Notes under the pieces: generated by a model
Told to the model about the DNA's origin: nothing
Databases searched by the model: none
What the model saw: the letters and a program-made list of their open reading frames with translations, nothing else
In this document: piece by piece, positions 26,596 to 44,119 of the stretch
Layout: every line of letters begins with the position of its first letter
Numbering within the stretch: position 1 is the first letter of the stretch
Program-made: the position numbers and the translations under genes
Source of the DNA: Pseudofrankia saprophytica
GTDB lineage: Bacteria; Actinomycetota; Actinomycetes; Frankiales; Frankiaceae
Reading direction: 5' to 3'
DNA: 64,000 nucleotides
NCBI RefSeq assembly: GCF_000235425.2
Contig: NZ_KI912266.1
Coordinates: forward strand, 3,985,293-4,049,292

Positions 26596-26927
26596 CCGTA
26601 GCCGGCGCCGCGGCGGCGAAGGTCCCAGATCGATAGAATCTCGGTCAGTGACGGTACTGTCGAACCGCGATGCCCTCTTGTAACCGCGTCCTGTTCATGG
26701 CGCGGCGCTGGTGCCAGGCACGGGGCAGGTAACATCTCATCTGCGGCGCCAGTTTGACGAATCAGAGCCGACCCTTGAGTGTTACCCTCGATGGTCTCCC
26801 GGATGTTGCTCGGCGTGACCGGACTGATGGCACTGGCGAACTTGCATCGACCCGATCAACCTTAGTATCCCATCCGTGCGGCTAGGCGATAGCCGCGAGC
26901 GAGCTCGATGCTAGGGGACAGCGAACG
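26596..26927. other. intergenic spacer, no gene recognised
   Basis: About 330 bp between the phosphotransferase promoter and the 3' end of the caspase-NACHT-WD40 gene. It is visibly richer in A/T than the flanks. No convincing reading frame, tRNA or terminator was found. Confidence 0.4.
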
Positions 26928-29900
26928 TCATTGGCGAACGTGGAAGGCAGCCAGCCCGGAGTTGGTTGCAACAAGAAGGCGGCGATCCGAGGTAATGGCG
27001 AGATCCCGGACTACGGTCGCCATCGTGATCTCGGCGAGCAGCCTCTTATCCGAGACATCCCATACTCGGACAAGACCATCGTTGCTGCCAGTGGCGCACA
27101 GCAGGTTGGGGCCGTCGGCGACGCAGCGGACGGCGCTGATCCAGCTTGCATGCGTGGTCATGCAATGGCCGACCTGCTCCCGCGTCGCCAGGTTCCAGAT
27201 GCGGACCGCGCCGTCGTCATCGCCCGTTACGACGACGTCCGCCTCGGCGAGTCGGCCGAACGCGACCGTGTTGACTTCCCCGCCGTGGCCCGCGAACGTC
27301 GCGATCGCCTCGCCAGACTCAACGTCCCAGATCCGCGCGGTCGCGTCGCCGGCGGCGCTCGCCAGCAGGCACCGCTCTTGGACCACCGCTGCGGCCAGCT
27401 CCATGATCCTTCCAGAATGACCTGTCAAAGACCGAAGTCTAGCTCCAGAGATCTGATCGAGTACAACGATGTTGTCGTCGTCTCCGGTGGCGAGCGCAGG
27501 CTTGCCGTCTGCTGTCAGTAGGACTATCCCTTGAAATCTTCCTAAGATCTTTCGGGGATCAGATACGTGCCTCATGTTGTGAATCCAGCATCCATTGATG
27601 TCGGCCACGAAAATCGACTCCGGATCGTCGTCGGGAAAGAAGTGCACACCTGTCGCGTAGTAGGCCAGAATTGGCGATAGGTATGTATTTCCGCTTTCCA
27701 GATCCCAGATTCGAACGACATCTGTGCCGAAGGCGCCAACCAACCTCCGGGAGTTTCCGTACGATGACACCTGCAGACCGGATACGCTCATATCTCCGCT
27801 GCCGATCCTATAAGTCGTGGGTCTGCCGCTCTCGACGTCCCACGGCTGCACCTGGTCGCCCTGTGATCGGGTCACCACGCCTATTAGTTGGCCCTGGGAG
27901 GAAATCGCTGTAACCCAGGTGCGGCGGTCATAGAGAGTGTCGATCAGCGGACGTCCGACCTGTCGGCCATCGGCGATGTCCCAGACGACGGCCCGGTCGA
28001 AGCATCGGAGGATCGCAAGTTCACGTCCTTCGTGGTGAACGAGGCGGGCACTAAGAACACTACCCGGTCCGGGCGCGGTCTGACTGGCAGGTGTGCCGGT
28101 AACCACGTCCCACAGCGTCAGGTTGTTGGCTCGGTCAGTCAGTAGCAGGATCGGTGTACCACCATGGCACGCGTCCGCTAGAACTCGACTGTGCTCGGGG
28201 ATTTTCGGAAGAGCATGGCCTGAGATCTCCGCAGCGAGCTTCCACAGGTAGCTCGATCCGGTAACGCTAGACGCAATGACGACCGTGCCACCATCGGCCT
28301 CCGCGACCATGAGGAAATCCAGGTCCGCGTTCAGCCCGGTCAACGGCTCTACGACAGCCCTGCCGGTGCCCACTTCCCACACCCTCACCGTGCCGTCGAC
28401 GCTGCCTGTCAGGAGCACCTGTTCGCCGGCCACCTGCGCGAACGTCAGGGCGGAGATGCTGTTGCTGTGCCCGACCAGCGTCGGACCAAGTTGGCGCTGG
28501 GTCACCAGGTCCCAGACGCGCACCTCACAGTCGGGGCTGCCAGTGGCGAGAACGTCAGTTCCCCGGGCGTAACCGAGCGCCAAGGCGGTCACGTCCTGGC
28601 GATGGCCGCGCAGCGGTGCCGTCACGGGCTCTCCGGTTAGGAGGTCCCAGACCAGTGCGGTCGTGTCCCGACTTCCCGTTACGACGACCGGCCTGCCTGC
28701 GACGCTCCCGGTCTGCAGGGCGCTGACGGTCTGGGTGTGTTCGTCCGGAGGTTGTTCGGCCGCGATGTCCCAGATCCGTACGACACGGTCGTCGCCGCCG
28801 GTGACCACCACTGGCCGGCTGCCGGCATCGCGCACCGCTACGGCAAAAACCGGTCCCGAATGGCCGACGAGCGGCTGCCCAATTGGCTGGCCGGATTCCA
28901 GGTCCCAGATGCGCGCCGTGTCACCGCAAGTCACGACGATCGCGCGACCGCGAAGGTAGCCGAGCGCGAGGCCTTTAATCCCTCGCCGGTGGGCGCCGAC
29001 CGGCTCGCCGATCTGTTGCCCGCTGGCGATGTCCCACCGTCCCCAGGTGCCGTCGGAGCTGCCTGTCACGACGATCGGCCTGCCCTGCAATAGACCGACG
29101 CCAACCTGGTTGACACTGTTCGAATGGCCGATGAAGGGCCGGCCGATCGCCTCACCCGAACCGACCCGCCATACCCTGACCTGGTTGTCGGCGCCGCCGG
29201 TCAACAGCACGTCGGCGCCGTCGAGCCGACCCAGCGCGACCGCGTGGACTACGCTACGGTGCCCCACGATCGGCGGCCCTAGCCGGGCGCCGTCGCGCAG
29301 CCGCCAAACCAACGCTGCGCCATCCCGGCTGCCGGTGGCGACAATCGCCTCGCCGTCGGATGACCCGACGGCGATCGCCGTGACGCCATTCGTGTGTCCA
29401 CGTAGCGGCGGGCGGATCTCCTCCCGCGTCGAGAGATCGAGAATGCGGACACAGCCCTCTGCCCCGCCCACGAGAAGTACCGAATATTCATCCAGCTCAC
29501 CCAGAGCGAGCGCAGTGATGCGCCGGTCGTCGGCCTTGAAGGAACCTCCCAGCGGCTCCAGGCTGAGAAGATCCCAGACACGCACGTTGCCGCCAGCATC
29601 CCCAGAGACCACGATCGGCTGACCGTCTAGGTCTCCCAGGACGACGGCGGTGATGGGCTCGGTGTGGCCGCTAATCTGCCGATGAACACCGGTTGGCGAC
29701 CACCAGGTCCACAGCGTCGACCATGGGAGGTCGACGTCTAGCCGCTCGAGGAGCCCGGCGAGTTCGTCGGCACCGCAGCGGCGAGCGGACAGCTGCAGGT
29801 ATGCGGCTCGCTCGGGCAGCGGTGCGGTCTCCCGTAGCCGGTTCGCAGTTTGCTCATAGGCCTTGCGGGCAGCCCGTCCCGCCGCCGACTGGACCGAGGA

Positions 29901-32096
29901 GAAGGCCCGCAGCAGCGTGCCCTGGTCGACCGCGAGCAGAAATCCAGGGTCCTCGACGAGCTGGTCAAGTACGCCACCCGCGGCCGCGTGGGTCGGCAGG
30001 TGCTCGCGGACATAGGCGCTGGCCCGCCACCAGTCGCGGCGAGCCGCGTGGTCGTCGGATGCCGTCACACCATCCGAGTTGCCAGCTCGGGGCGGCACCC
30101 CGCTCACCAGCGACCGTGAGATGCGCCGTTGCGCGTCCCGCTGCGGGAACCGCGGATCCGACCGCAGGTGTTCGGCGAGCGCTTGGTGGTACAGCCGGTA
30201 CACCGAGCGGCCGGCGGGGTCGACGACCTCGGCGATGTAGGCGGCGGCCTCCCGCAGCAACGCGCCGATGTCCTCGTCCGTGCAGACCGATCCGGCGAAC
30301 ACGGTCGCCAGCTGCGCCCACAGGATTCCTCGCGGCAGGCCGTGCCCCTCGGCGAAGGCCAGCGGGGCGAGCATGCGGCGCACCCGCTCCTCGTCCGGCC
30401 CGAACCGGGCCAGGTAGTCGTCGAAGGCCTCGCCGATCTCCGTCGGCAGCCGGTCCGCCCAGTCCGGGTCCGTGACGTCGATGGGCACCGGCGCGGAGCG
30501 CAGACTGCGGGACGTCATCCGGGCCACGAGGAACACACCGTCCGCGCGCTGGGCCACGGCCTGCCCGACGACGTCCGCGAGGTCGCGCTGACCGCGATAG
30601 GGCGTCGAGACCTCCGGTTGGTCCTCGGAGAGCAGCACCGCCCGGACGTAACCGGCGATGTCGTCCGCCCCCAGGTATCCGGACCTGTCGATGTCGAGCG
30701 TTCGCAATGTGGGCCCGAGCGCGCCTAGCAGGTCACGTCGGGTGCCGACGAGTAGCCGCACGCCGGGAATCTCCGACAGAGGTCGCAGCAGCTCGCGTGC
30801 GATGCGCCTGGGCTCTCTGCGCGCGGCGGTGTCGGAGTACGTGCCGGAGCCTGCCTCGTCGAGCGCGTCGACGACGACCACGACACACCCTTCGCGTGCC
30901 CGCCGGCTCACCTCCTGCAGCAGCCGGCTGGTGCCGTCGGCGGGCGCGCCCAGTTGGGTGCCGATCTGCTGCACCACCTCCTCGAGCCGCTTGTGCCGGG
31001 CATGGACGGCGACGTCGACCACGCCGGCCGGCAACGTCAGCTCGGGATCGACGTCGTCGAGATCGAGCGAACGCCGGTACACCGGGTCCGACATTGCGAC
31101 GACGCGTCCGAGCACTGCGGACTTGCCCGATCCGGGATTGCCCGTAACGATGCGTCCCTTGCCATCCGATTGCTCGTCGGTCAGCCAGGAGACCAGTTCG
31201 CGCAGCAATTTCTCGCGGCCTCGGAAGTACAGTCCTCGTTCGGATTCGTACTCGACGCCGCGGGAGCGTGGGCCGAAGTGGTCGACGAGGTCGCGCTTCG
31301 CGGCGAGCAGTTGGGTCTCGAGATCCGTGCCAACTGGCGGAAGTGTCTCCTGGTAGCCGGTGTTCGGTAGAAACGGAGCAAGGCCGGTTACCAGCCCGGC
31401 CGCCAGTTCCGTCCGTTGGTCCAGGCCGTGCTCGCGGAACAGCGTGTTGATCGTGTCGACCAGCTCGGCCAGGTCGATGAAACGCTGCCGCTGGCCGGCG
31501 CGCACAGCCGCCGCGTCGACGGCGCGAGGCAGCAATGCACCGAACGCGCCGTCTACCGCCTGGTCCGCGGCTCGGGCCGACGACAGGAACCACATTCCGG
31601 TGCTCGCGTTCGACGTGGAAAGCCGGCGGCTCAGGGACTGGAGCGCGAGGGTAGCGCCGTCCGCGGCACCAGCGCCTGCGTAACAGGCGTCGAGCAGAAG
31701 GAGGACGTTGCCGAGCTGGCCGCCGGTGAGGATCCGCACCAGGTCCTCGGTGGCGAGCGCGCTCGCCGCGAGGTCATCCGACCGGCTGTCCCAGCACAGC
31801 AGGTAGTGCCGGTCGCCGTCGACCGTCACGCCGTGGCCGCCGTAGTAAAGGGTGACCAGGTCTTCCGGGCCCAGCGCGGCGTCCCGGCACCAGTGGCTCA
31901 GCACCTCCTTCACGTGGGACGCGGACGAATACTGCCCGAGGCCAGGCAGAGGCACCTCATAGCCGAGGTCAGTGAACAGCCGGGTCACTCTCGCGACGTC
32001 CTGCCCGACGGCGGGGAGTTCACCGTGTGGAAGGTGGGCGTAGCGTTCGACGCCGACGCATAGAAGAAACCGCCGACCGGTCGGCGCTTTGGTCAT
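26928..32096 (-). CDS. caspase-like / NACHT-type NTPase / WD40 repeat protein
   Basis: A 1722-residue signalling protein. Residues 8-240 are a C14 caspase-like peptidase with the His88 (LYYGGHG) and Cys138 (LLLLDACYAG) dyad. Residues about 290-700 are a STAND NTPase with Walker A GNPGSGKS (319-326) and Walker B VVVVVDALDE (405-414). From about 805 to the end there are WD40 repeats; I count about 14 clear ones (GHxxxV...VRVWD) plus several degenerate ones, enough for two or more propellers. ATG 32096 has gggggcag before it. The propellers probably sense a ligand, the NTPase oligomerises and the protease fires, as in bacterial caspase/NACHT immunity. It is less GC-rich than its neighbours, suggesting transfer. 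Confidence 0.88.
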   Translation of the reverse strand: MTKAPTGRRFLLCVGVERYAHLPHGELPAVGQDVARVTRLFTDLGYEVPLPGLGQYSSASHVKEVLSHWCRDAALGPEDLVTLYYGGHGVTVDGDRHYLLCWDSRSDDLAASALATEDLVRILTGGQLGNVLLLLDACYAGAGAADGATLALQSLSRRLSTSNASTGMWFLSSARAADQAVDGAFGALLPRAVDAAAVRAGQRQRFIDLAELVDTINTLFREHGLDQRTELAAGLVTGLAPFLPNTGYQETLPPVGTDLETQLLAAKRDLVDHFGPRSRGVEYESERGLYFRGREKLLRELVSWLTDEQSDGKGRIVTGNPGSGKSAVLGRVVAMSDPVYRRSLDLDDVDPELTLPAGVVDVAVHARHKRLEEVVQQIGTQLGAPADGTSRLLQEVSRRAREGCVVVVVDALDEAGSGTYSDTAARREPRRIARELLRPLSEIPGVRLLVGTRRDLLGALGPTLRTLDIDRSGYLGADDIAGYVRAVLLSEDQPEVSTPYRGQRDLADVVGQAVAQRADGVFLVARMTSRSLRSAPVPIDVTDPDWADRLPTEIGEAFDDYLARFGPDEERVRRMLAPLAFAEGHGLPRGILWAQLATVFAGSVCTDEDIGALLREAAAYIAEVVDPAGRSVYRLYHQALAEHLRSDPRFPQRDAQRRISRSLVSGVPPRAGNSDGVTASDDHAARRDWWRASAYVREHLPTHAAAGGVLDQLVEDPGFLLAVDQGTLLRAFSSVQSAAGRAARKAYEQTANRLRETAPLPERAAYLQLSARRCGADELAGLLERLDVDLPWSTLWTWWSPTGVHRQISGHTEPITAVVLGDLDGQPIVVSGDAGGNVRVWDLLSLEPLGGSFKADDRRITALALGELDEYSVLLVGGAEGCVRILDLSTREEIRPPLRGHTNGVTAIAVGSSDGEAIVATGSRDGAALVWRLRDGARLGPPIVGHRSVVHAVALGRLDGADVLLTGGADNQVRVWRVGSGEAIGRPFIGHSNSVNQVGVGLLQGRPIVVTGSSDGTWGRWDIASGQQIGEPVGAHRRGIKGLALGYLRGRAIVVTCGDTARIWDLESGQPIGQPLVGHSGPVFAVAVRDAGSRPVVVTGGDDRVVRIWDIAAEQPPDEHTQTVSALQTGSVAGRPVVVTGSRDTTALVWDLLTGEPVTAPLRGHRQDVTALALGYARGTDVLATGSPDCEVRVWDLVTQRQLGPTLVGHSNSISALTFAQVAGEQVLLTGSVDGTVRVWEVGTGRAVVEPLTGLNADLDFLMVAEADGGTVVIASSVTGSSYLWKLAAEISGHALPKIPEHSRVLADACHGGTPILLLTDRANNLTLWDVVTGTPASQTAPGPGSVLSARLVHHEGRELAILRCFDRAVVWDIADGRQVGRPLIDTLYDRRTWVTAISSQGQLIGVVTRSQGDQVQPWDVESGRPTTYRIGSGDMSVSGLQVSSYGNSRRLVGAFGTDVVRIWDLESGNTYLSPILAYYATGVHFFPDDDPESIFVADINGCWIHNMRHVSDPRKILGRFQGIVLLTADGKPALATGDDDNIVVLDQISGARLRSLTGHSGRIMELAAAVVQERCLLASAAGDATARIWDVESGEAIATFAGHGGEVNTVAFGRLAEADVVVTGDDDGAVRIWNLATREQVGHCMTTHASWISAVRCVADGPNLLCATGSNDGLVRVWDVSDKRLLAEITMATVVRDLAITSDRRLLVATNSGLAAFHVRQ

Positions 32097-32346
32097 GGCT
32101 GCCCCCGTTGACGGGCCCTTGACTCCCGCCGAGACGTCGAATTCGCCATTCCCGCCGACCGGGCGGCGAACGATCACGAGGGATCCTAGCGTGCGCCGAT
32201 CGCGCGGCAGCCCCGTTCATATGCGCGGATGGGCAGGATTTGTCGTTGACCCTGCCGCGACTGACCCCATCAGGTCGCGACCACGGCGGCACACAGCGGT
32301 GATCAATCAGTCGCGTACTCCCGGGCGAGCGTGGCCGGGGGCGAGG

Positions 32347-33611: not shown

Positions 33612-33675
33612 GCGCGGTGCGGTCAGGGCGCGGTGTGGTGAGGGCGTGGTGTGGTGAGGGCGTGGTGTGGTCAGG
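33612..33675. repeat. four tandem 16-bp repeats
   Basis: The unit gcgyggtgyggtsagg occurs four times at 33612, 33628, 33644 and 33660, with one to three differences between copies. The last copy overlaps the stop codon (33671-33673) of the SARP regulator on the minus strand. The preceding 33553-33611 is also repetitive GC-rich sequence. Confidence 0.65.
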
Positions 33676-36600
33676 GCGCGGTGGCGAGCTCGGTGAGCAG
33701 CGCCCGTGCGTCCCGGGCGACACCGGCCATGCCGCGCCGGTCCGCGCGTTCTGCCACGTCGCGCAGCTCCGCGTCGTCGACCGGCCCGCCGGCCCGCGCC
33801 GCGAGCTGGGCGGCGAACAGCCGGCAGCGCAGCAGCGAGCCGATGCCGTGGGTACGGGCGGCGAGCTCCGCGGCGGTGCGCAGGTGGGCCCGCGCCGCCG
33901 GCAGGTCGTCGGCCAGGGCGGCGAGCCGCGCGAGGCCGAGGGCGACGGGGCCCACCATGCCGCACTGCCCGATGTTGGCGGCGCAGTGCGCGACGGGGGC
34001 CAGCCGGGCCGACAGGATCTCCACCTGCTCCCGCAGGCCGCGGTCGGCCACCGCATGCGCGAGCATGGTCAGCCGGCCGTGGGTGGTCCAGGTGACCGGC
34101 TCGAACCGGGCGATCTCGGCCGCTACCAGCTCGTCTGTGCCGGGACCGCCCTGGGTGATCGCGGCCAGCGCCGCGGTCCACGGGGCGGACATGTCGACCG
34201 GCAACGTCTCGTCCGGCTCGTGCGGCCGGCCCTGTTCCCAGCGCAGGGTCAGCAGGGCAGCCTGGTAGGCGCCGCTCTGGTACAGCTCCGTCTCGCGGTG
34301 CAGCTCGGAGGCGTGCCGGTAGGTCGCCTCCGCGGCGGTCAGGTCGTCGTCGCGCCACAGCGCGAGAGAGCCCTGTGCCCAGCGGAACTGCACTCGGCTC
34401 GCCGGCAGCCGCAGCAGGTCACTGCCGACGGCGCCGAGCCGCACGTGGTCGGCCGCCGTCGGGTCCCCGAGTGCCGTCTTCGCCAGGTATCGCAGGCCGT
34501 GCGCGATCACCTCATCGAGCTGGGCGCTGGCGTGCGGCACCGCGGCGAGCCGGTCGAGCAGGTCGAGGGATTCGGCGGCCCGCTCGGCGATTCCGGAGAA
34601 CGCCAGCGCCCGGCCGAGCAGGGCGTCGGCCAGGGCCTCGTCGTCACCGGTCTGCTCGGCGAGGTCGATCGCCCGCTGGCTGAGCAGGTCGGGCACCGAG
34701 CCGTCCGGGTCGTAGCAGCTTCCGACCGCGAGCGCGGCCAGCACCCGGACGCGGGCGACCGGGTCGGCGGTGACCAGCGTCTCCAGGCCGGCGAGGCGGG
34801 CCAGCAGCGGCGCCGGGTCGTCGCCGTAGGCGGGCCACGGCCATGAGCCGCTGGTGCGCAGCAGGGCGGCGGCGAGCCTGCCCGCCGAGTCCAGCCGCCC
34901 GCGGCGCACCGCGTCGAGCAGGCCCGCGTCGACCACGTCGAGCAGGGTCTGCCCGCGGCCGGCCCTGGCGAGTGCCGCCACCCGCGCGACGACGACCTCG
35001 TCCCGGTCGACGCCGGGACCATCGCCGGAACCACTGCCGCGACCGCCGGTGGTCTGGTCGAGCGCGTCGAGCGCCTGTCCCCACCAGTGCGCCGCCGCCT
35101 CGGAGTACCACCGGCGCTCCGCGTCGAGCGCCGCCGCCCGGCAGGCGTCGAACACGTCGGCGGCGTCGGCGAGCGGCCAGGCCGCGACGAGATGCGCCGC
35201 CCGCCGGGAGAGCGCCTCGCCGCCCCCGGCCGGGCCGAGCGCCTCGGCGACCCGCAGGTGCAGCCGCTGGCGGCGCAGGCCGGAGATGCCGGCCACGACC
35301 TCGTCCCGCAGCAGGGCGTGCGCGAACATGTACCGCCCGGTGCCGGCGGCCTGAACGATGACATGCTCGTCCGCGGCCTCGTCCAGCAGGTCTGCGAGCT
35401 CGTCGCGGTCGAGCCGGGTGACCCGTCCGAGCAGGTCGATGTCGAGGGTGTCGCCGATGACCGCGGCGGCCCGCAGCACCTGCATGACGGCCAGGTCGAG
35501 CCCGGCGAGCCGCTGGCCGAGCACCGAGCGCACGGCCACCGGCACCTGGCCGCTGGCCCGTTCCTCGGCGGGCAGCCGGGCGTACTCGCAGACGAAGAAC
35601 GGGTTGCCGCCGGTCCGGTCGGTGAGCTGGGCCGCCTCGGCGGCGTCGAGGGCCTGCCCGCTGACCCGGCCGGCGAGCTCGGTCACCTCGGCTTCGGTGA
35701 GCGGCGGGACGGCGAGGCGCCGGGAGCCGTGCCGGCGGGACACGGCGGCGAGCAGCCGGGCGAGCTCGGGGTTCCCGGAGACGTCCCGGGCGGTGGCGAC
35801 GACGGCGAGGCCGGGGAACGCCGCCGCGCCCGCGAGATGGGTGAGCAGCCGCAGCGACGCCGGATCCGCCCAGTGCACGTCCTCGGCCACGACCAGCAAC
35901 GGCCGGGCCGCGGCGGCGTCGGCCAGCGCGTCGGCCACCCGGTCGTAGACGACGAACCGGGCCGCGTCGGCGTCGACGCCGGCCGGCGGGGTCAGCAGGT
36001 CGTCCGGATCGGCGCCAAGGTCACGCAGCAGCTGGCGCAGGGGCCACCATGGCGGCACCACGTCGTCGGGGCATCCGGTGCGCGAGACGACCCCGCCGGC
36101 CCGCTGCCAGCTGCCCGCGGCCTCCTCGGCGAGCCGGCTCTTGCCGATTCCGGCCGGGCCGGTCAGGACCATCCAGCGGCCGGGGCCGGCGATCGCCTCG
36201 GCGAGCGCGGACTCCAGCGCCGCCACCTCCCGGGCCCGGCCGACCAGGTCGTCGTCGACCGATGGCGGCCGCGCCCGGTCCGTCATGGTGCCGCCGGTCG
36301 CGTCGGCGTGGGCACTGGTGGCGCCGGCGTTGGTGGCGCCGGCCGCGCCAGGAGCGATGCCGCTGGTGGCGACGGCCAGCCCGACACCGGCGACACCGGC
36401 GGTGCCGGCGCGGCTGGTCGGATCCGACGAGACCGGGGTCGCGGGCCACGCGTCGAGCTCGCCATCCTGGCGCAGGATCGCGCCCTGCAGGTCGCGCAGC
36501 GCCGGGCCGACGTCCAGGCCCAGCTCCTCGTCCATCCGCCGGGCCTGCTCGCGGAACACGTCGAGCGCCTCCGCGGCCCGTCCCGCTCGATAGAGGGCGA

Positions 36601-37216
36601 CCATGCGCAGCCAGCAGGCCTGCTCGGCGAGCGGCGTGGCGAGCAGCAGCTCACGGGACCGCGAGACGGCGGCGGTGACCCGCCCGACGCCGAGGAGGCC
36701 CGTGATCGCGTGCTGCTCGCACTGCGCCCACCGCTCCTCCACGGACGCCGCCGCCGCCAGCACCCACGGCTCGTCGGCGAACTCGGCGAGCAACGGTCCC
36801 CGCCGCAGCGCCGCGGCGCGCTCGGTGGCCTCGACGGTCGCCGGCCAGTCACCGGTCTCGGCCGCGGCGCGCGCCCGGTCGCATTCCCGCTCGAACAGCC
36901 GCAGGTCGATCTCGTCGGCGGCGACGTCCGCGACATAGCCGGGGTTGCGGCGCACGATCGGCGACGTCGCCCGCTCGTCGTCCCGCAGCAGCCGGCGCAG
37001 GTTGGAGATATGGGCGTGCAGGCTGGACAGCATGCTCGGCGGGTGTTCGTCGCCCCAGACGGCGTCGGCCAGGCGGTCGACGGAGACGACCCGGCCCGCG
37101 TCGAGCAGCAGCGCCGCAAGCACGGCGCGCTGCTTGGGCCCGCCCAGCGCGACCGGCCGCCCGTCGCGGACCACCTCGACCGGGCCGAACAGGCGGTAGG
37201 ACGGCACGCGTCTCAT
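33671..37216 (-). CDS. SARP/AfsR-like regulator with BTAD and AAA NTPase domains
   Basis: An 1181-residue regulator. Residues 1-95 are an OmpR-type winged helix-turn-helix (FGPVEVVRDGRPVALGGPKQRAVLAALLL), 100-255 the bacterial transcriptional activation domain (EECDRARAAA-type helices, VALYRAGRAAEALDVFREQARRMDEELGLD), then a Gly/Ala-rich linker, an AAA/STAND NTPase with Walker A GPAGIGKSR (about 350) and Walker B LLVVAEDVHWAD, and a C-terminal TPR-like helical array. Such proteins activate specialised-metabolite or stress genes. It starts 32 bp after the helicase-PLD gene on the same strand, so the two may be co-transcribed. The target is unknown. Confidence 0.85.
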   Translation of the reverse strand: MRRVPSYRLFGPVEVVRDGRPVALGGPKQRAVLAALLLDAGRVVSVDRLADAVWGDEHPPSMLSSLHAHISNLRRLLRDDERATSPIVRRNPGYVADVAADEIDLRLFERECDRARAAAETGDWPATVEATERAAALRRGPLLAEFADEPWVLAAAASVEERWAQCEQHAITGLLGVGRVTAAVSRSRELLLATPLAEQACWLRMVALYRAGRAAEALDVFREQARRMDEELGLDVGPALRDLQGAILRQDGELDAWPATPVSSDPTSRAGTAGVAGVGLAVATSGIAPGAAGATNAGATSAHADATGGTMTDRARPPSVDDDLVGRAREVAALESALAEAIAGPGRWMVLTGPAGIGKSRLAEEAAGSWQRAGGVVSRTGCPDDVVPPWWPLRQLLRDLGADPDDLLTPPAGVDADAARFVVYDRVADALADAAAARPLLVVAEDVHWADPASLRLLTHLAGAAAFPGLAVVATARDVSGNPELARLLAAVSRRHGSRRLAVPPLTEAEVTELAGRVSGQALDAAEAAQLTDRTGGNPFFVCEYARLPAEERASGQVPVAVRSVLGQRLAGLDLAVMQVLRAAAVIGDTLDIDLLGRVTRLDRDELADLLDEAADEHVIVQAAGTGRYMFAHALLRDEVVAGISGLRRQRLHLRVAEALGPAGGGEALSRRAAHLVAAWPLADAADVFDACRAAALDAERRWYSEAAAHWWGQALDALDQTTGGRGSGSGDGPGVDRDEVVVARVAALARAGRGQTLLDVVDAGLLDAVRRGRLDSAGRLAAALLRTSGSWPWPAYGDDPAPLLARLAGLETLVTADPVARVRVLAALAVGSCYDPDGSVPDLLSQRAIDLAEQTGDDEALADALLGRALAFSGIAERAAESLDLLDRLAAVPHASAQLDEVIAHGLRYLAKTALGDPTAADHVRLGAVGSDLLRLPASRVQFRWAQGSLALWRDDDLTAAEATYRHASELHRETELYQSGAYQAALLTLRWEQGRPHEPDETLPVDMSAPWTAALAAITQGGPGTDELVAAEIARFEPVTWTTHGRLTMLAHAVADRGLREQVEILSARLAPVAHCAANIGQCGMVGPVALGLARLAALADDLPAARAHLRTAAELAARTHGIGSLLRCRLFAAQLAARAGGPVDDAELRDVAERADRRGMAGVARDARALLTELATAP

Positions 37217-37248
37217 GATGCCCGCCGCCGGAGCGTTCTCGCCCGCCG

Positions 37249-40200
37249 TCAGGCGCTGGAGCCTGCGCCACCGCGCGGCGTCCTCCTCGTGGCGTTGTCA
37301 TCCCGGGGGAGCTGTTGCTGCGTGCCGCACGCGGGGCACACCCAGTGCCAGCCGTCGCCCTGCGCCCTCGCGGATCGGGCCCCGTCCATGACGGCGCCCT
37401 CTTTAGGGCAGGAGGGTGGCTCGGCGAGCTGGGCCGCGCGTTCGTGGCGGAGGACCTGCGCGGCGAACCGCCGTCCCCGGTGGCGAATCATGATCTCGCG
37501 GCGGCCGGTGCTGGAGAGCGTGTTGTAGCTGCCGACGAAGACGGTCTCGTCGTCGACGATGACGATCTTCTGGTGCATCTGGCGGAGGCGGACGAGACGG
37601 CTCACGGCGCCGGCAAGCTCGCCGAGCCGGCGGTCCTGGTGTCGGCTGCTGGCGCGCTGGCGCCGGTGCACCCAGTCCTTCTCGTCGACGACGAAGGCCG
37701 TGACCGTCACGCCACGGTCCCGGGCCCGGGCGAGCAGGGGCACCAGCGCGTCCTGGCGGGCTCCGAACCACGGCGACCAGATCCACACCGAGTGGTTGGC
37801 GTCCTGGATCGCGTCCCGCACCGCCGTGACGTAGCCGGCTTCGTCGTAGATCCTCTCCACGACGACGTGCCCCTGGAACGCCTCCCACAGTTCACCGACC
37901 AGCGGGTCCGTGGGCGGGGCGTCCTTCCCGTCCGGGTCGGGGAGCCCGAGGAGGTCGACGGCACGGACAACGTGGATCGTGCCGTCGCGGACCAGCTGCC
38001 CGACCGCGCCGAGCGTGGAACGGGCGTACGCGGCGGCGACCGCGCGCCGGCTCACCAGCAGGTAGGCCCGATGCCGAGCACGGGTGATGGCGACGTTGAG
38101 AAGCTTCGCCCCCTCACGGTCCATCGGCCGCGCGGAGCGCAGCGACGCCCGGGCCGCCCAGCCCGGAACGCCGCCGTCCTCGACCAGATCGACGATGGCG
38201 ACGTCGAACTCTCGGCCCTGGAACGTGTGGGCTGTTCCCGCTTCGACGGGCGGGTCGCCGCCCAGCGAGCCAACATCGTCGAGGTAGTCGACGGTGGCGA
38301 GGGCCTGCGCACGGTAAGGGGTGATGATTCCGGAGCTCTCGCCGCGCTCGCGATGATGCTCGGCGAGTGCACGGGCGAGAAGGCTGCCCGCCAGCCACCA
38401 TCGCCCGGCCTGGCCGGCCGGCAGGCGCACCCGCCCGAGCTCGTCGAGTCCGAGGCCGTCAAGGCCGTCGGTATCGACGAGGACGATCTGGGCGTCGTCG
38501 GCCGAGGCCGGCGCGGGCCGACCGGCGACGAGCACCCCGTCGTAGGCGATCCTGTTGGCCAGCTCGACCAGCTGCGGGCCGAAGCGGCGCGTGGTCCGCA
38601 GGGCCACGCAACCCGGCATGGCCAGCGCGGTCGCGGGTTCGGTCACGCCCACCAGCGCGAAGCAGTCCTGCAAGAGCCAGGGGGCATGCGGCGCGGATTC
38701 GTCCACGGTCGGCCGGACGGGGCCAAGTTGGCGGAAGTCACCGAGCAGGACGACGGTCTCCTGGGCCTTCGCCGCGGCGAGCAGAAGGTCGGGGAGCAGC
38801 GCGGCCGCCGCCTCGTCCACGAACACGGCGTCATACGGGCCGTCGTAGACGGCCGAGTGGATCCGGAACCGGGTAAGGGTCGCCGCGACGAGGCGTGCCT
38901 TTCTGATGATCGCGGGCTCTGTCTCGGTTCGGGACTTCTCCAGCGCTTCCAGGACCTGCTCGTAGCGTCGTTCGAGCGCACTGCGCTCGTCCCGCACAGA
39001 CGCGGCTGTCTTCGACAGCACCGCGCGTTCGTCCGCCAGGGCGGGAAGCCCCGCGCGCTCGGCGGCCTCGATGACGGCTCGATCCCGGTCGGACGCCCCG
39101 GCGCGCGCCAGAATCTGGGCACGAACCGCCCGAAGCCGTTCGACCTCCTGGTAGGCCGCATCAAGGGAGGCCTGTGCCCGCCTGAGGGCCTTCCGGGCAT
39201 CGGCCACGGCGCCCTGCCGCCGGGTGACCTCGCCGGCCGTGACCGGCGCGGCGGCCGACTCATGCTCGGCGGCCAGGGGCGTTGCCAGCGCACGGTGCTC
39301 GTCGGCCAGCCGCCGGGCCTCGTCGTGCTCCCACGTCGCGGCGGCGAGCGAACGTTCGGCTTCGGCCACGGCCGCGCCGAGGCGGGCCTGTTCGGCTCGG
39401 TTACGCAGCCAGGCTCGTGGCGTGCCGCCCGGAAGTGCCGCGCGTCGTTCGCGTAGGGACGTCAGCCGTCTTCCCACGGCCCGGAGGGAGCCGGCCGCCG
39501 CGACGGCGTGGGCATCCAACCGGGCCGTCTCCGCGCGAAGGCGGCTGGCCTCGGCCAGCCGTTCACTCACCGCGCTGATCGCTCCCAGCTCGTCGCAGGC
39601 GCGCACCCAGGCGGCGTGCAGCTCGTCGCGCGCGCCCTCGGCAGCACGCAGCCGCGACTCGGCGGCGCTCAGCTGGTCTGTGCGCGCCGCGAGGGCACGG
39701 TCCCGCTCGACGCGGGCCTGGGCGGCGCGGTGAGCCACGAGCTCGAAGCCGTCGAGGCGTTCGTCCAGCTCCTGAAGTCGCGCCAGCGCGGGATCACCCT
39801 CGAGCTGGCGGATCTTCTGCTCCAGTTCCGCCAGCTGGCCCGTCAGTGTCCGCAGGCGTGCCTGCACGAGGCGGGGGAGTGAGACCCGGTCGTCCTGAGC
39901 GATCCTGGCGAGGGCGGGCGGGCCCACTCTGACCAGTTCTCCGGCCGGCGGGTCGCGGGCGAGGACGACGCCGAGTAGTGCGTTGTCGACGGCGATGTTC
40001 GTCGCGGAGACCAGCAGCACCCGCTTTCCTCGGGTGAGCAGGTCGTCGATGGCTCTCGCGAGCACGGTTGTCTTACCCGTGCCCGGAGGACCCCAGACCA
40101 TCCGTACACCGTTGGTCGTACAGGCGTGGTAGGCGCGCGCCTGGTCGCTGGACAGTCCGGGGGCCTGGTTCACCGTTGCCAGTACGGGAGTGAGAATGCC

Positions 40201-40764
40201 GTCGACTATCTGGCTGGCGAGTCCAGGGTCGCCCAGATTCTTCCAGCACTCGACGAGGTTGCGCTCGAGGTAGCCCGCGGCCCTCGCGGTTCCCCACAGC
40301 CACAGGCCGGTGTGCGGCGCGTGCGGAGCGACGCGCACACGCAGTTCACTTCGCCCTTCCTCTACAGCGGTCACCCGGTACGTCATCCGGTCCGATGCGT
40401 CCGTTCCCCGGGGTGCGAGGTGCAGGTCGATCATGGCATCGACGCCGATCGGGCCCCGGGCCGTCGATACGGCGTACACGCCCTCGTCTACGCGGCGTGC
40501 CTGCGCAAGCGGTCGCGGTCGCGGCCGATCTCGGCGGTCGGGCGGTACCAGGGTCTGCGCGGCGGTGGTGACCTGCTCGACCCAGCTCGGCCGCACGAGC
40601 GCCTCCAGCATCGAACGGAGCACTGCTGACTCTGGCGGCAGAACGCCGAGGTACCAGTTGGTGACTATAGGGATCAATCGTAGGTCGATGTGTCGCCGTG
40701 GAAGGCTGTTTGTGACAGGGGTGCCCTCGTACGTGGCCAGGGTGGAGTACCGACTCGGGATCAA
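37249..40764 (-). CDS. SF1 RNA/DNA helicase fused to a PLD nuclease (Mokosh type II-like)
   Basis: A 1171-residue protein. Walker A is GPPGTGKTT (about 223-231), followed by a long Ala/Glu/Arg-rich coiled-coil insert (about 290-610). Next come the DExx-type box VFVDEAAAALLPD (about 645), SF1 motifs GDFRQLGPVRPT and TAHTFQGREFDVAIVDLV, and NVAITRARHRAYLLVSR as motif VI. The C-terminal part is a phospholipase D-like nuclease with one HKD motif (MHQKIVIVDD, about 1060) and SYN, then a Cys pair CPACG. The COG1112-like helicase plus PLD plan resembles type II Mokosh anti-phage proteins. The start is a TTG and uncertain; in-frame sequence continues upstream. Confidence 0.8.
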   Translation of the reverse strand: MIPSRYSTLATYEGTPVTNSLPRRHIDLRLIPIVTNWYLGVLPPESAVLRSMLEALVRPSWVEQVTTAAQTLVPPDRRDRPRPRPLAQARRVDEGVYAVSTARGPIGVDAMIDLHLAPRGTDASDRMTYRVTAVEEGRSELRVRVAPHAPHTGLWLWGTARAAGYLERNLVECWKNLGDPGLASQIVDGILTPVLATVNQAPGLSSDQARAYHACTTNGVRMVWGPPGTGKTTVLARAIDDLLTRGKRVLLVSATNIAVDNALLGVVLARDPPAGELVRVGPPALARIAQDDRVSLPRLVQARLRTLTGQLAELEQKIRQLEGDPALARLQELDERLDGFELVAHRAAQARVERDRALAARTDQLSAAESRLRAAEGARDELHAAWVRACDELGAISAVSERLAEASRLRAETARLDAHAVAAAGSLRAVGRRLTSLRERRAALPGGTPRAWLRNRAEQARLGAAVAEAERSLAAATWEHDEARRLADEHRALATPLAAEHESAAAPVTAGEVTRRQGAVADARKALRRAQASLDAAYQEVERLRAVRAQILARAGASDRDRAVIEAAERAGLPALADERAVLSKTAASVRDERSALERRYEQVLEALEKSRTETEPAIIRKARLVAATLTRFRIHSAVYDGPYDAVFVDEAAAALLPDLLLAAAKAQETVVLLGDFRQLGPVRPTVDESAPHAPWLLQDCFALVGVTEPATALAMPGCVALRTTRRFGPQLVELANRIAYDGVLVAGRPAPASADDAQIVLVDTDGLDGLGLDELGRVRLPAGQAGRWWLAGSLLARALAEHHRERGESSGIITPYRAQALATVDYLDDVGSLGGDPPVEAGTAHTFQGREFDVAIVDLVEDGGVPGWAARASLRSARPMDREGAKLLNVAITRARHRAYLLVSRRAVAAAYARSTLGAVGQLVRDGTIHVVRAVDLLGLPDPDGKDAPPTDPLVGELWEAFQGHVVVERIYDEAGYVTAVRDAIQDANHSVWIWSPWFGARQDALVPLLARARDRGVTVTAFVVDEKDWVHRRQRASSRHQDRRLGELAGAVSRLVRLRQMHQKIVIVDDETVFVGSYNTLSSTGRREIMIRHRGRRFAAQVLRHERAAQLAEPPSCPKEGAVMDGARSARAQGDGWHWVCPACGTQQQLPRDDNATRRTPRGGAGSSA

Positions 40765-40901
40765 GATCGATCGAAGCGTGCCTCGGTCGTCGACGGTCGT
40801 GACCCGACCTGGGCCGTTCGCCGAACGACCGGCTTGCCGAGCTGGGTGATCATTTTCTTCGGCGACGGGCGGCCGATCGGTGCCCGGCGGGCCGACGTCC
40901 T

Positions 40902-41084
40902 GGCTACTGCCCCGGCAGGTCGGCGCTCGAGGCGGTGGCGGTGTGCCAGAGGCGGTGCTGGGAACGGTCCTGGGTCATCGACCTGGACATCGAGAAGTTC
41001 TTCGACACCGTTCCGGATGAAGAGATCATCCTGGCGGTGCAAAGGCACAGCGAGCACCGGTGGGTGCAGCTCTATGTACGTTGG
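40902..41084 (+). pseudogene. group II intron reverse transcriptase fragment
   Basis: One frame reads GYCPGRSALEAVAVCQRRCW then WVIDLDIEKFFDTVPDEEII and ends WVQLYVRW. These match the RT2-RT3 region of bacterial group II intron maturases, including the RT motif A Asp in DLDIEKFFD. There is no upstream RT0/RT1 part and no downstream YADD, maturase or endonuclease region, so this is a remnant. It marks a former mobile-element insertion next to the helicase-PLD gene. Confidence 0.75.
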
Positions 41085-41158
41085 CAGCCGCGTGGTCAAA
41101 GATCACCGGCACGCTCGCTCGGCCGGGCGGCCATGGGAGGCAGACCCGCAGGTCGTAG

Positions 41159-41182
41159 TCGTCGTCGCCAAGTCACAGGTGG
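41159..41182 (+). repeat. weak third copy of the dispersed repeat
   Basis: The stretch tcgtcgtcgccaagtcacag shares the gCgAAGTCACA core with the stronger copies at 42603 and 63754, with several differences. It lies between the RT fragment and the 23-bp hairpin, so it may be a decayed copy. Low confidence. Confidence 0.3.
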
Positions 41183-41217
41183 AGCCTGCCGGCAGCGGTG
41201 GCCGTCGATGGCAGTCA

Positions 41218-41269
41218 ATGATCCGGTGGGATTTTCGGAGCTGGGACTCCGAGAATCTCACCAGATCAT
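41218..41269 (+). repeat. 23-bp stem hairpin
   Basis: Arms 41218-41240 and 41247-41269 pair at 22 of 23 positions in a plus-strand RNA, counting two G.U wobbles, around the 6-nt loop ctggga. A third arm, gatctggtgggatct (about 41281-41295), repeats the left-arm core and could pair with the right arm instead. It lies 130 bp after the RT fragment. It may be the remnant of an intron or mobile-element RNA, or an attC-like fold. Confidence 0.55.
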
Positions 41270-41379
41270 GAACAGGCCGAGGATCTGGTGGGATCTTGGG
41301 TGCGGCTCGGCGCGCTGCTCGTGGGTTTCCCGCCAGACAATCAGAAGGAGAAGTCCATCGGCGGCACTCGGCCTCGTGG

Positions 41380-41640
41380 CTACCTGAATGTGTCGGTCGA
41401 CAGGTCGAACGTCACCGTTGTCTTACCGTCAGGGGCTCCGCCTGGCGATGTCGCGTCCGCCGTCAGCGTGAGAACGCCGTTGTTGGCGCTGACGAAGGAC
41501 AGAGGTCCGGCGGCGGCGCTGTCCGTGAAGAGGCCGATTCGCTTGAAGCGCTGGTCCGGGGCATTGGACTCGCCGGCATAGACGACCAGCCACTGGCCGA
41601 TCCAGCGAGGCTGACCAGGGGTTTTGGCATTGCGAGCCCT
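41380..41640 (-). pseudogene. headless 3' fragment of an unknown gene
   Basis: An open minus-strand frame ends in TAG at 41380 and encodes about 86 residues with protein-like composition: QPRWIGQWLVVYAGESNAPD, then FKRIGLFTDSAAAGPLSFVS, and GKTTVTFDLSTDTFR at the end. No ATG, GTG or TTG opens it, and it stays open into low-quality sequence towards 41720. The alternating hydrophobic pattern suggests beta strands. It looks like the C-terminal end of a gene cut by a rearrangement. No family is recognised. Confidence 0.45.
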
Positions 41641-41722
41641 GTCGGCGCGGGGGCACGGAGTCCCGGGTGCCGCGATGCGGGGCCTGGGCGATGCCCGGCG
41701 GTGCGGGGAGCGGCGTGGGCGC

Positions 41723-42517
41723 TCAGCTTGGCTCGTGGTCCTCTCCGTCCGGGCTGGCGATCACGACGGTGTAGCCGTCGGGATCCTTCAGCCAGATCTC
41801 GCGGTGTGCCGGGCCGTTGCCCTCGCCGCTGGGCGGGTTGCGCATGGGCGGGTGCACCACCGCCGCGCCGAGCCGTCCGGCGCGCTCGACGGCGCCCTCG
41901 AAGTCGGCGACCTCCCCGAACCACAGCACCGCGCCGTTGCCGATCGGCTGGTCGGGGTCGGCGAGCTGGCCGTGGCCGTGCTCGACGTCCCAGCGGTGCA
42001 GCTGCAGGACGAGGGTGCCGTCGGCGGTGACGAGCCGCTCGTAGTCCTTGCCGCCGTGGTCGGAGCGCAGCCCGAGCAGCTCCTGGTACCAGCGGCTGGA
42101 CGCCTCGACGTCGCGCGCGACGACCAGCGGCTGCGGCCGCGGCGGGCCGGCCGGCACCGCGATGCCCAGCCTGTTGCCGGCCGGATCGCTGACCTGGACG
42201 AGGTAGCGGATGCCGCCCTGCCGTCGCGGCCGCCCGAGTACCTGGCCGCCACGCAGCTCGACCAGGCGCAGCGCCTTGTAGAGGTCGTCGGCCATGAGCC
42301 ATAGCAACGGCCCGCCGGGCCCGACCGGTAGGTCGGTGGTGAGCTGGCCGATGAGGCCCGGCGCGCGGAAGCCGACCGCGCCCGTGCCCTGGCCAGGCTC
42401 GTCGACCTCCCAGCCGAACACATCCCGATAGAACGCGGCGGCGGCGGAAAGGTCGACCGCCGGAATCCACAGATAACCAACCGGGCTTCCCGTCCCGGAT
42501 GTCGTCACGCCGCTCAT
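41723..42517 (-). CDS. two-domain VOC family protein
   Basis: A 264-residue protein with two fused VOC modules. The first opens GYLWIPAVDLSAAAAFYRDVFGW and ends VSDPAGNRLGIAVP. The second opens PLVVARDVEASSRWYQELLGL and ends WLKDPDGYTVVIASPDG. Tandem VOC proteins form the active-site pair within one chain and include dioxygenases and drug-binding proteins. ATG 42517 has gggagg nearby; ATG 42541 is an alternative. It lies beside the mobile-element scar and upstream of the dispersed repeat. The substrate is unknown. Confidence 0.85.
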   Translation of the reverse strand: MSGVTTSGTGSPVGYLWIPAVDLSAAAAFYRDVFGWEVDEPGQGTGAVGFRAPGLIGQLTTDLPVGPGGPLLWLMADDLYKALRLVELRGGQVLGRPRRQGGIRYLVQVSDPAGNRLGIAVPAGPPRPQPLVVARDVEASSRWYQELLGLRSDHGGKDYERLVTADGTLVLQLHRWDVEHGHGQLADPDQPIGNGAVLWFGEVADFEGAVERAGRLGAAVVHPPMRNPPSGEGNGPAHREIWLKDPDGYTVVIASPDGEDHEPS

Positions 42518-42602
42518 GTCACGCCTCCCGCCCAAGCACACGAACGAGTGTCCAGCACGCCGATCGTCGGCCGCGATGCGGGCGGGCTCCGATGGGCAGT
42601 GA

Positions 42603-42650
42603 TCGTCTGTGCGAAGTCACAGATGTGGGCCTTGATCACGAGGGCGGTGG
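42603..42650. repeat. dispersed repeat, copy 1
   Basis: tcgtctgtgcgaagtcacag followed by atgtgggccttgatcacgag matches the stretch at 63754-63796 almost base for base over about 24 bp and loosely beyond. The core contains a small hairpin (TGTG-cgaagt-CACA). It lies in the 186-bp gap between the VOC and flavin-oxidase genes. Confidence 0.55.
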
Positions 42651-42703
42651 CTGGCAGCCCAGGTCGGTGCCTGGGCTGCTCGCGCGGACCGGCGAGTGTG
42701 TGG

Positions 42704-44119
42704 TCAGGAGCGGGCGCGGGCGGCGGCGGCCGCGCGCACCGGGTGTGCCGACGCGATCCGGCCGTTCGGGTCGTAGCTGGCGGTCAGCGTGGCGAGCCGG
42801 GACAGGGCGGGCGCGTCGTACTTGCGCGCGACCAGCGCCGGGTCGGTGGTCGCGCCGAAGTTCGGCGCGCCGAGGCCGCCGGACCACGGTTCCATCGCGG
42901 CCATCACCTCGGTGGCGTGGCCGGTCGTCGCCGCGGCCAGCGGCGGCGCCGCGATGCCGATCGTCAGCAGCGAGTAGGCGGCGTCGCGGTGGCAGACGGC
43001 GCTCGGCTGACGGGGCTCGCGGGCGAGCGCCCCGCCGAGCAGCCGCAGCTCGACGATGACCTGGGGGCAGTCGGCCGCGGGGCCGGTCAGCGCGAGCAGG
43101 GTGCGCACCGCCGTGTCGGGCAGCTCGCGCAGCAGCACCGCCTGCTCGTGGACCGGCATCGGGTCGACCGGATCGGCGTGGATCATGCCGAGCGCGGGGA
43201 ACGGCAGGACGTCGACACCGCCGAAGATCACCGGTGCCAGGCCGCGGATCGGGTCGATCACCCGCTCACCGTCGGCCGGGTCGCCGACCCAGGCGAACCG
43301 GACCGCGACGGTGCAACGGCCGGCGAGCGGGGCCGGCACCGCCGGCATCGGCGGCAGCCGCAGCACGGCGATCGACGTCGACGCCTGCTCCGGCAGCGCC
43401 GCCGACCAGGTCTTCCACGCCGACATGACCCGGTCGGCGTCCGCGCCGTCGAAGTAGAGGCAGCCGCCGTAGATCTCCTGGACGTCCAGCAGTTCGAACT
43501 CCACGGCGGTGACGACGCCCAGCGCGCCCTTGCCGCCGCGCAGTCCCCAGAACAGCGCCGGGTTCTCGGTCGCGGTGGCCCGGCGGGCCACGCCGTCGCC
43601 GGTGACGACGTCGAACGCCGTCACCAGGTCGCTGCCGTAGCCGAAGCTACGGGCGACCGGCGACAGGCCACCGCCGGTGAGGTAGCCGACGACGCCCACG
43701 TGCGGGGCGGAGCCGGCGAGCGCGCCGAGGCCGTGCACGGCGGCGGCGTCGAGCACCTGCTGCCAGCGCACCCCGGCGCCGACCCGGGCCAGCCGCCGCA
43801 CCGGGTCGATGGCGACCTCGTCCAGGGCGCCGGTGTGCACCAGCAGGCTCGGGCGGGTCTGGGCCAGAGCCCCGTGCCCGGTCGCCTGCACCACGACGTC
43901 GAGGTCGTGGGCGTCCGCGAAGCGCACCGCCGTGGCGACGTCGGCGGGGTCGGCGACCGCGACGACGGCTACCGGCGCTGTCGGCACCGCCACGTTCCAC
44001 GGGGTCGCGGCCGCCAGGTAGGCGTCGCTGCCGGGCAGCAGGACCTGGCCGTTGATCTTCTCGGCGAGGGCGGCGAGCGCGACGACGAGGGACGGGGTGT
44101 CGGAGGCGAGCGTCGACAT
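42704..44119 (-). CDS. FAD-linked oxidase with BBE C-terminal domain
   Basis: A 471-residue flavoprotein of the berberine-bridge/6-hydroxynicotine-oxidase group. The FAD_binding_4 domain has VVVQATGHGALAQ, whose His is the usual 8-alpha-FAD attachment residue, and GSAPHVGVVGYLTGGGLSPV, where the Cys of bicovalent enzymes is absent. The C-terminal BBE segment (KYDAPALSRLATLTASYDPNGRI) closes the FAD pocket. Family members oxidise alcohols, amines or polyketide intermediates with O2. It is divergent from an MFS exporter, so the pair may make or detoxify and export one compound. Confidence 0.87.
   Translation of the reverse strand: MSTLASDTPSLVVALAALAEKINGQVLLPGSDAYLAAATPWNVAVPTAPVAVVAVADPADVATAVRFADAHDLDVVVQATGHGALAQTRPSLLVHTGALDEVAIDPVRRLARVGAGVRWQQVLDAAAVHGLGALAGSAPHVGVVGYLTGGGLSPVARSFGYGSDLVTAFDVVTGDGVARRATATENPALFWGLRGGKGALGVVTAVEFELLDVQEIYGGCLYFDGADADRVMSAWKTWSAALPEQASTSIAVLRLPPMPAVPAPLAGRCTVAVRFAWVGDPADGERVIDPIRGLAPVIFGGVDVLPFPALGMIHADPVDPMPVHEQAVLLRELPDTAVRTLLALTGPAADCPQVIVELRLLGGALAREPRQPSAVCHRDAAYSLLTIGIAAPPLAAATTGHATEVMAAMEPWSGGLGAPNFGATTDPALVARKYDAPALSRLATLTASYDPNGRIASAHPVRAAAAARARS

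What the first reader, a model, noticed from the sequence alone, without database searches (positions are those of the whole stretch)
37249..40764. Helicase-PLD fusion resembling a type II Mokosh system
Single-chain SF1 helicase (COG1112-like motifs) with a C-terminal PLD HKD nuclease is the layout described for type II Mokosh. This one also has a roughly 300-residue coiled-coil insert between the Walker motifs and a terminal Cys pair, and it may be co-transcribed with a SARP regulator, which would be unusual for defence.
Basis: partly seen in the sequence, partly recalled or inferred. Interest (0 to 1): 0.65.

Follow-up and report, generated by a model that had tools for sequence, protein, structure and literature searches.

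The report
Mokosh-like helicase–nuclease, distinct lineage
A rare single-gene protein of actinobacteria joins an RNA/DNA helicase to a nuclease in the layout of the anti-phage protein Mokosh type II; it is too divergent to count as Mokosh, but its relatives sit among known phage-defence genes, so it is probably a separate Mokosh-like defence gene.

Summary
The ORF is real, but on the MINUS strand (37249-40764, 1171 aa; probable true start M52, 40611). It belongs to a rare, patchy actinobacterial family: five intact members plus a degenerate one. Three of the four other intact members lie beside recognised defence genes: a complete Wadjet operon; Menshen NsnB/NsnC plus a DruE-like helicase; a type I methyltransferase plus a DndB-like gene. 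It has Mokosh type II architecture, and the ~400-residue spacing between motifs I and II is the same in MkoC, so the insert is not unusual. It is not an MkoC by sequence: about 105 bits, partial, against 1026-1414 bits full length for real MkoCs, and its helicase core falls in a separate supported clade. The SARP link is positional: in five relatives the SARP gene directly follows an FAD-oxidase gene, and the helicase lies inside a ~5.5-kb insertion between them. Verdict: probable single-gene anti-phage/anti-mobile-element nuclease-helicase, working like Mokosh II but a different lineage. Phage protection is untested.

The parts
37249..40764 (-). Helicase-PLD-zinc-ribbon gene (1171 codons from TTG; likely start ATG at 40611, giving 1120 aa)
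   Evidence: start by comparison with homologues
40069..40092 (-). Walker A / motif I, GPPGTGKT, residues 225-232
38890..39894 (-). Long helical, coiled-coil-like insert between motifs I and II, about residues 291-625
   Evidence: composition; same spacing in MkoC
38806..38817 (-). Motif II (Walker B) DEAA, residues 650-653
38056..38376 (-). Helicase C-terminal domain (AAA_12), residues 797-903
37450..37818 (-). PLD nuclease domain (PLDc_2), residues 983-1105
37522..37575 (-). Single HKD motif HQKIVIVDDETVFVGSYN, residues 1064-1081
37327..37410 (-). C-terminal zinc-ribbon-like motif C...WHWVCPAC, residues 1119-1146; conserved in the family, absent from the four MkoCs
37223..42696 (.). About 5.5-kb insertion holding the helicase-PLD gene, a reverse-transcriptase scrap and a glyoxalase gene; absent from five relatives. 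Borders are approximate
40899..41102 (+). Fragment of a reverse transcriptase (RVT_1, below the Pfam cut-off; group II intron type by its wording), a scar in the insertion
41723..42541 (-). Glyoxalase/bleomycin-resistance-like gene, second intact gene of the insertion
33671..37216 (-). SARP-type regulator (Trans_reg_C + BTAD + AAA_16), conserved; present without the helicase in five relatives
42704..44119 (-). FAD-binding oxidase, the ancestral upstream neighbour of the SARP gene

Best explanation
A single-gene defence protein that works like Mokosh type II without being MkoC. Shown: an Upf1-type SF1 helicase core with intact motifs, fused to a PLD nuclease domain with one intact HKD motif and to a zinc ribbon. 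Inferred: the helicase, aided by the N-terminal domain and the ribbon, loads on and moves along foreign RNA or single-stranded DNA (phage transcripts or replication intermediates); ATP-driven movement brings the substrate to the PLD domain or releases it from inhibition; two chains pair through their PLD domains, because a single-HKD enzyme needs two copies to build one active site (general knowledge of Nuc/Zucchini-type PLD enzymes); the nuclease then degrades the foreign nucleic acid, or the cell's own in abortive infection. It arrives by horizontal transfer and is easily lost.
For: Domains and motifs. Catalytic motifs conserved in five intact members at 35-55% identity. Rare and patchy: 3 full-length copies in 35 genomes of the order, 5 in 394 of the class. 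Defence neighbours of three of the four other intact homologues: complete Wadjet JetA-D operon, 464-1480 bits, about 4 kb from the G002 copy; NsnB 384 bits and NsnC 355 bits 0.1-2 kb away on one side and a DruE-like helicase, 295 bits, on the other in G917; type I methyltransferase 879 bits and a DndB-like gene in G855. A RAMA-domain gene next to the fourth. Lies in an insertion absent from relatives and already decayed in BMG5.36. Profile-profile match to MkoC runs from motif II through the HKD motif, 410 columns, E 2.4e-30.
Against: No phage challenge. In this window the insertion carries no recognised defence gene. Only four other intact loci, and no background rate of defence neighbours was measured. 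The one more distant homologue (P0006) has lost both the Walker A lysine context and the HKD motif and does not sit among defence genes. RNA or DNA as substrate cannot be told.
Confidence: 0.68

Rival explanations
1. It is a true but divergent type II Mokosh (MkoC): one ancestral helicase-PLD fusion whose actinobacterial branch diverged and gained a zinc ribbon.
For: Same domain order, same motif I-II spacing, collinear profile match. A Bacillota relative, P0009, seems to keep a PLD remnant without HKD (my reading, not a Pfam hit); with it included, one helicase-PLD clade is not rejected (p-AU 0.08).
Against: 105 bits against 1026-1414; the two groups are separate clades, each starred, with PLD-less helicases on either side; one clade without P0009 is rejected, p-AU 0.015.
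Confidence: 0.3
2. A housekeeping or general RNA/DNA repair helicase-nuclease.
For: Upf1, Smubp2 and Dna2 are the nearest solved structures; a Ku gene lies near the G855 copy.
Against: Absent from most relatives, including most of its own genus, and truncated in a close relative.
Confidence: 0.08
3. Part of a SARP-controlled secondary-metabolism locus (co-transcribed with, or regulated by, the SARP gene).
For: Same strand, 32-bp gap, no terminator-like site found between them.
Against: In five relatives the SARP gene stands directly behind the FAD-oxidase gene with no helicase; the other helicase homologues have no SARP neighbour in the stretches examined. BMG5.36 lost most of the helicase and kept the SARP gene at 88% protein identity.
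Confidence: 0.05

Closest known systems
Mokosh type II (MkoC, PADLOC PDLC03924)
   Same: One chain: COG1112 SF1 helicase, about 400 residues between motifs I and II, one C-terminal PLD HKD motif; collinear profile match over 410 columns.
   Different: 15-18% identity to the real MkoCs, 105 bits partial against 1026-1414 full length; separate helicase clade; shorter N-terminal part; C-terminal zinc ribbon that the four MkoCs lack.
Mokosh type I (MkoA + MkoB)
   Same: Best single PADLOC score is to MkoA, 123 bits here and up to 153 bits in relatives.
   Different: Separate genes with a kinase domain by the published description (PMC11672841); here one gene and no kinase domain. Real MkoCs score the same 103-121 bits to MkoA, so this is generic helicase similarity.
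Upf1/NAM7, Smubp2, Dna2 (SF1B helicases)
   Same: Nearest solved structures by sequence.
   Different: Eukaryotic or archaeal-type housekeeping enzymes, no PLD domain.
P0009, Metabacillus COG1112 protein (L003:7509-9743)
   Same: Helicase core is sister to this family, support 99/95.
   Different: Only 157 residues between motifs I and II and no HKD motif.

Membership tests
Mokosh type II (MkoC) | Single chain, COG1112-type SF1 helicase at the N side | tested here: met
   Pfam AAA_11 + AAA_12; Upf1/NAM7 nearest solved structures
Mokosh type II (MkoC) | C-terminal PLD-family nuclease domain with HKD motif | tested here: met
   PLDc_2 9e-13, HKD at 1064-1081
Mokosh type II (MkoC) | Full-length match to the MkoC profile at the level of real MkoCs | tested here: not met
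   105 bits, best stretch covers model 855-1115 of 1136; real MkoCs 1026-1414 bits over 1-1135
Mokosh type II (MkoC) | Helicase core inside the MkoC clade | tested here: not met
   Separate supported clades, MkoC 100/100 and this family 97/99; one joint clade rejected at p-AU 0.015, but 0.08 if P0009 is added
Mokosh type II (MkoC) | Protects against phage | not testable with these tools
   Needs a phage challenge assay
Mokosh type I (MkoA/MkoB) | Two genes: helicase with serine/threonine kinase domain, and separate PLD protein | tested here: not met
   One gene, no kinase domain in Pfam or NCBIfam
Defence-island gene | Homologues lie among known defence genes | tested here: met
   Three of four other intact homologues; no background rate measured
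Housekeeping helicase | Conserved across the genus and family | tested here: not met
   Full-length in 2 of 8 genomes of the genus searched (own and G002) and in 3 of 35 of the order
SARP-regulated operon | Conserved linkage of helicase and SARP genes | tested here: not met
   SARP gene without helicase in five relatives; no SARP gene in the examined flanks of the other homologues

The most novel reading that the evidence does not exclude
An unrecognised single-gene defence family in which an Upf1-type helicase joined a PLD nuclease independently of Mokosh and added a nucleic-acid-binding zinc ribbon; the same helicase-PLD design would then have been reached at least twice.
Probability: 0.4. 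Interest if true: 0.62.

Novelty: new variant of a known kind. Interest (0 to 1): 0.5.

Why it matters
Defence-finding tools that use the MkoC profile would see this family only as a weak, partial hit, so a Mokosh-like defence branch in actinobacteria may be going uncounted. If it protects, comparing it with MkoC would show which parts (helicase, long insert, PLD, ribbon) are needed for the design and whether it arose twice. It also shows how two genes 32 bp apart on one strand can look like an operon when one of them has simply inserted there.

Tried and rejected
Membership in MkoC by profile score: rejected after calibration on real MkoCs. Functional SARP operon: rejected by empty sites. Insert as a special feature: rejected, MkoC has it too. 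Flanking direct repeats of the insertion: only 7-9-bp matches, nothing convincing. Phage and viral homologues: none; plasmids: only weak generic helicase matches. Rfam: no RNA family above its cut-off; one chance hit. Terminator between helicase and SARP: none found, and the scan is uninformative in high-G+C DNA. PLD+ribbon structure from single sequence: pLDDT 53, no PDB match below E 0.001, though some PLD enzymes head the list; not used as evidence. I did not submit alignments holding rows from unnamed whole genomes to the structure tool, because its stated rule does not list them. Two large genome searches failed on the server.

Full report
OBSERVATION. The ORF lies on the minus strand at 37249-40764, 1171 codons from a TTG, and is a single copy in its genome. 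Pfam finds AAA_11, AAA_12 and PLDc_2 above their cut-offs. Motif I is at residue 225, motif II at 649, and one HKD motif at 1064-1081. A zinc-ribbon-like motif follows at 1119-1146. The homologues start at the residue that matches W61, so the gene probably begins at M52 (ATG, 40609-40611).

RELATIVES. Full-length homologues exist in G002 (55% identity), G011 (38-40%), G917 and G855 (35-36%), with the helicase motifs, HKD motif and ribbon conserved. A more distant protein in G060 (P0006) has APPGTDKT for motif I and no HKD motif, so it is probably catalytically dead, yet it keeps the ribbon. The family is rare: 3 full-length copies in 35 genomes of the order, 5 in 394 of the class, 2 matches in 119 of the phylum including the window. 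The genomes reached by search are unnamed. No homologue was found in phage records or viral contigs.

WHY THE SARP LINK IS NOT FUNCTIONAL. In five relatives (L032-L036) the window's SARP gene and the FAD-binding oxidase at 42704-44119 are direct neighbours, with roughly 30-200 bp between them. Window 37223 to about 42696, with the helicase gene, a reverse-transcriptase scrap and a glyoxalase gene, is missing there. BMG5.36 shares the insertion, with the helicase reduced to a remnant. The other helicase homologues have no SARP gene in the flanks I annotated. Read-through into the SARP gene is possible but would be a by-product of the insertion.

DEFENCE CONTEXT. G002: a Wadjet operon, JetA (664 bits), JetB (477), JetC (1480) and JetD (466), begins about 4 kb from the homologue. 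G917: NsnB (384 bits) and NsnC (355 bits), the Menshen genes, lie on one side and a DruE-like helicase (295 bits) on the other. G855: a type I methyltransferase (879 bits), a DndB-like gene, Ku and a NERD-like protein. G011: a RAMA-domain gene, weak evidence. The G060 degenerate copy has no such neighbours. Four loci are few and I measured no background rate, but the hits are strong and independent.

IS IT MOKOSH TYPE II? The published description is a COG1112 helicase at the N side and a PLD nuclease at the C side of one chain (PMC11672841, PMC10013915). That architecture is met. To calibrate the profile I fetched four plasmid-borne MkoCs. They score 1026-1414 bits over the whole PADLOC model. 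The window protein scores 105 bits over part of it, its relatives 91-116, while PLD-less COG1112 helicases in related genomes score about 50-200. Sequence membership is therefore not met. The real MkoCs have 393-425 residues between motifs I and II against 407-416 here, so the insert is common to both. Only this family has the ribbon. Profile-profile comparison aligns the two from motif II through the HKD motif, 410 columns, E 2.4e-30, which shows homology of both domains but not one fusion event.

ONE FUSION OR TWO? In a tree of 33 helicase cores the family (97/99) and the MkoC group (100/100) are separate, with PLD-less helicases on both sides. Forcing one clade is rejected at p-AU 0.015. 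The family's sister, P0009 of Metabacillus, has a C-terminal stretch that I read as a PLD remnant; adding it raises p-AU to 0.08. The question is open. Some MkoC-group proteins of Bacillota themselves lack the PLD part, so loss is also possible.

MECHANISM. Shown: intact helicase and nuclease motifs, ribbon, mobility, defence neighbours. Inferred: the helicase tracks along foreign RNA or ssDNA and the paired PLD domains cut it; the ribbon adds nucleic-acid binding. For Mokosh itself the held papers speak of degradation of viral transcripts (PMC11291487) without detail, so RNA is a reasonable first guess, not a result.

CONFIDENCE. Helicase-PLD-ribbon anatomy: very high. Distinct from MkoC by sequence: high. 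SARP link accidental: high. Defence function: about 0.7. Independent fusion: about 0.4.

Noticed in passing
window 26928-32177 (-): 1749-aa protein with many WD40 repeats and a weak caspase-like N-terminal match (PADLOC caspase, 23.5 bits). It lies in a second insertion, about 26603-32345, absent from G005 and from BMG5.36, so the conserved SARP block is flanked by two strain-specific insertions.
   Followed up: partly
L018:6031-12043 (-), genome G006: Three genes in a row: a TIR-domain protein (107.8 bits), a COG1112 helicase without PLD (P0005) and a protein with a weak MkoB match (23.9 bits, 5.6e-6). Could be a separate TIR-helicase defence system.
   Followed up: partly
L019:6655-11445 (-), genome G012: 1596-aa fusion of a caspase domain (Peptidase_C14, 88 bits) with a COG1112 helicase; L066:3153-6857 (P0007) looks like a similar caspase-like-helicase protein and groups with it in the tree.
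   Followed up: no
L060:7302-10955 (-), genome G060: Family member with both the Walker A and the HKD motif broken but otherwise full length and with the zinc ribbon kept, plus a long PGGG-rich linker; perhaps a repurposed inactive copy.
   Followed up: partly
L074-L078 (Bacillota genomes): Proteins that score 928-1031 bits to the MkoC model but end before the PLD part, so the PADLOC MkoC model also collects PLD-less helicases over most of its length.
   Followed up: partly
window 40899-41102 (+): Reverse-transcriptase fragment, 24.8 bits (below the Pfam cut-off), between the helicase and glyoxalase genes.
   Followed up: no
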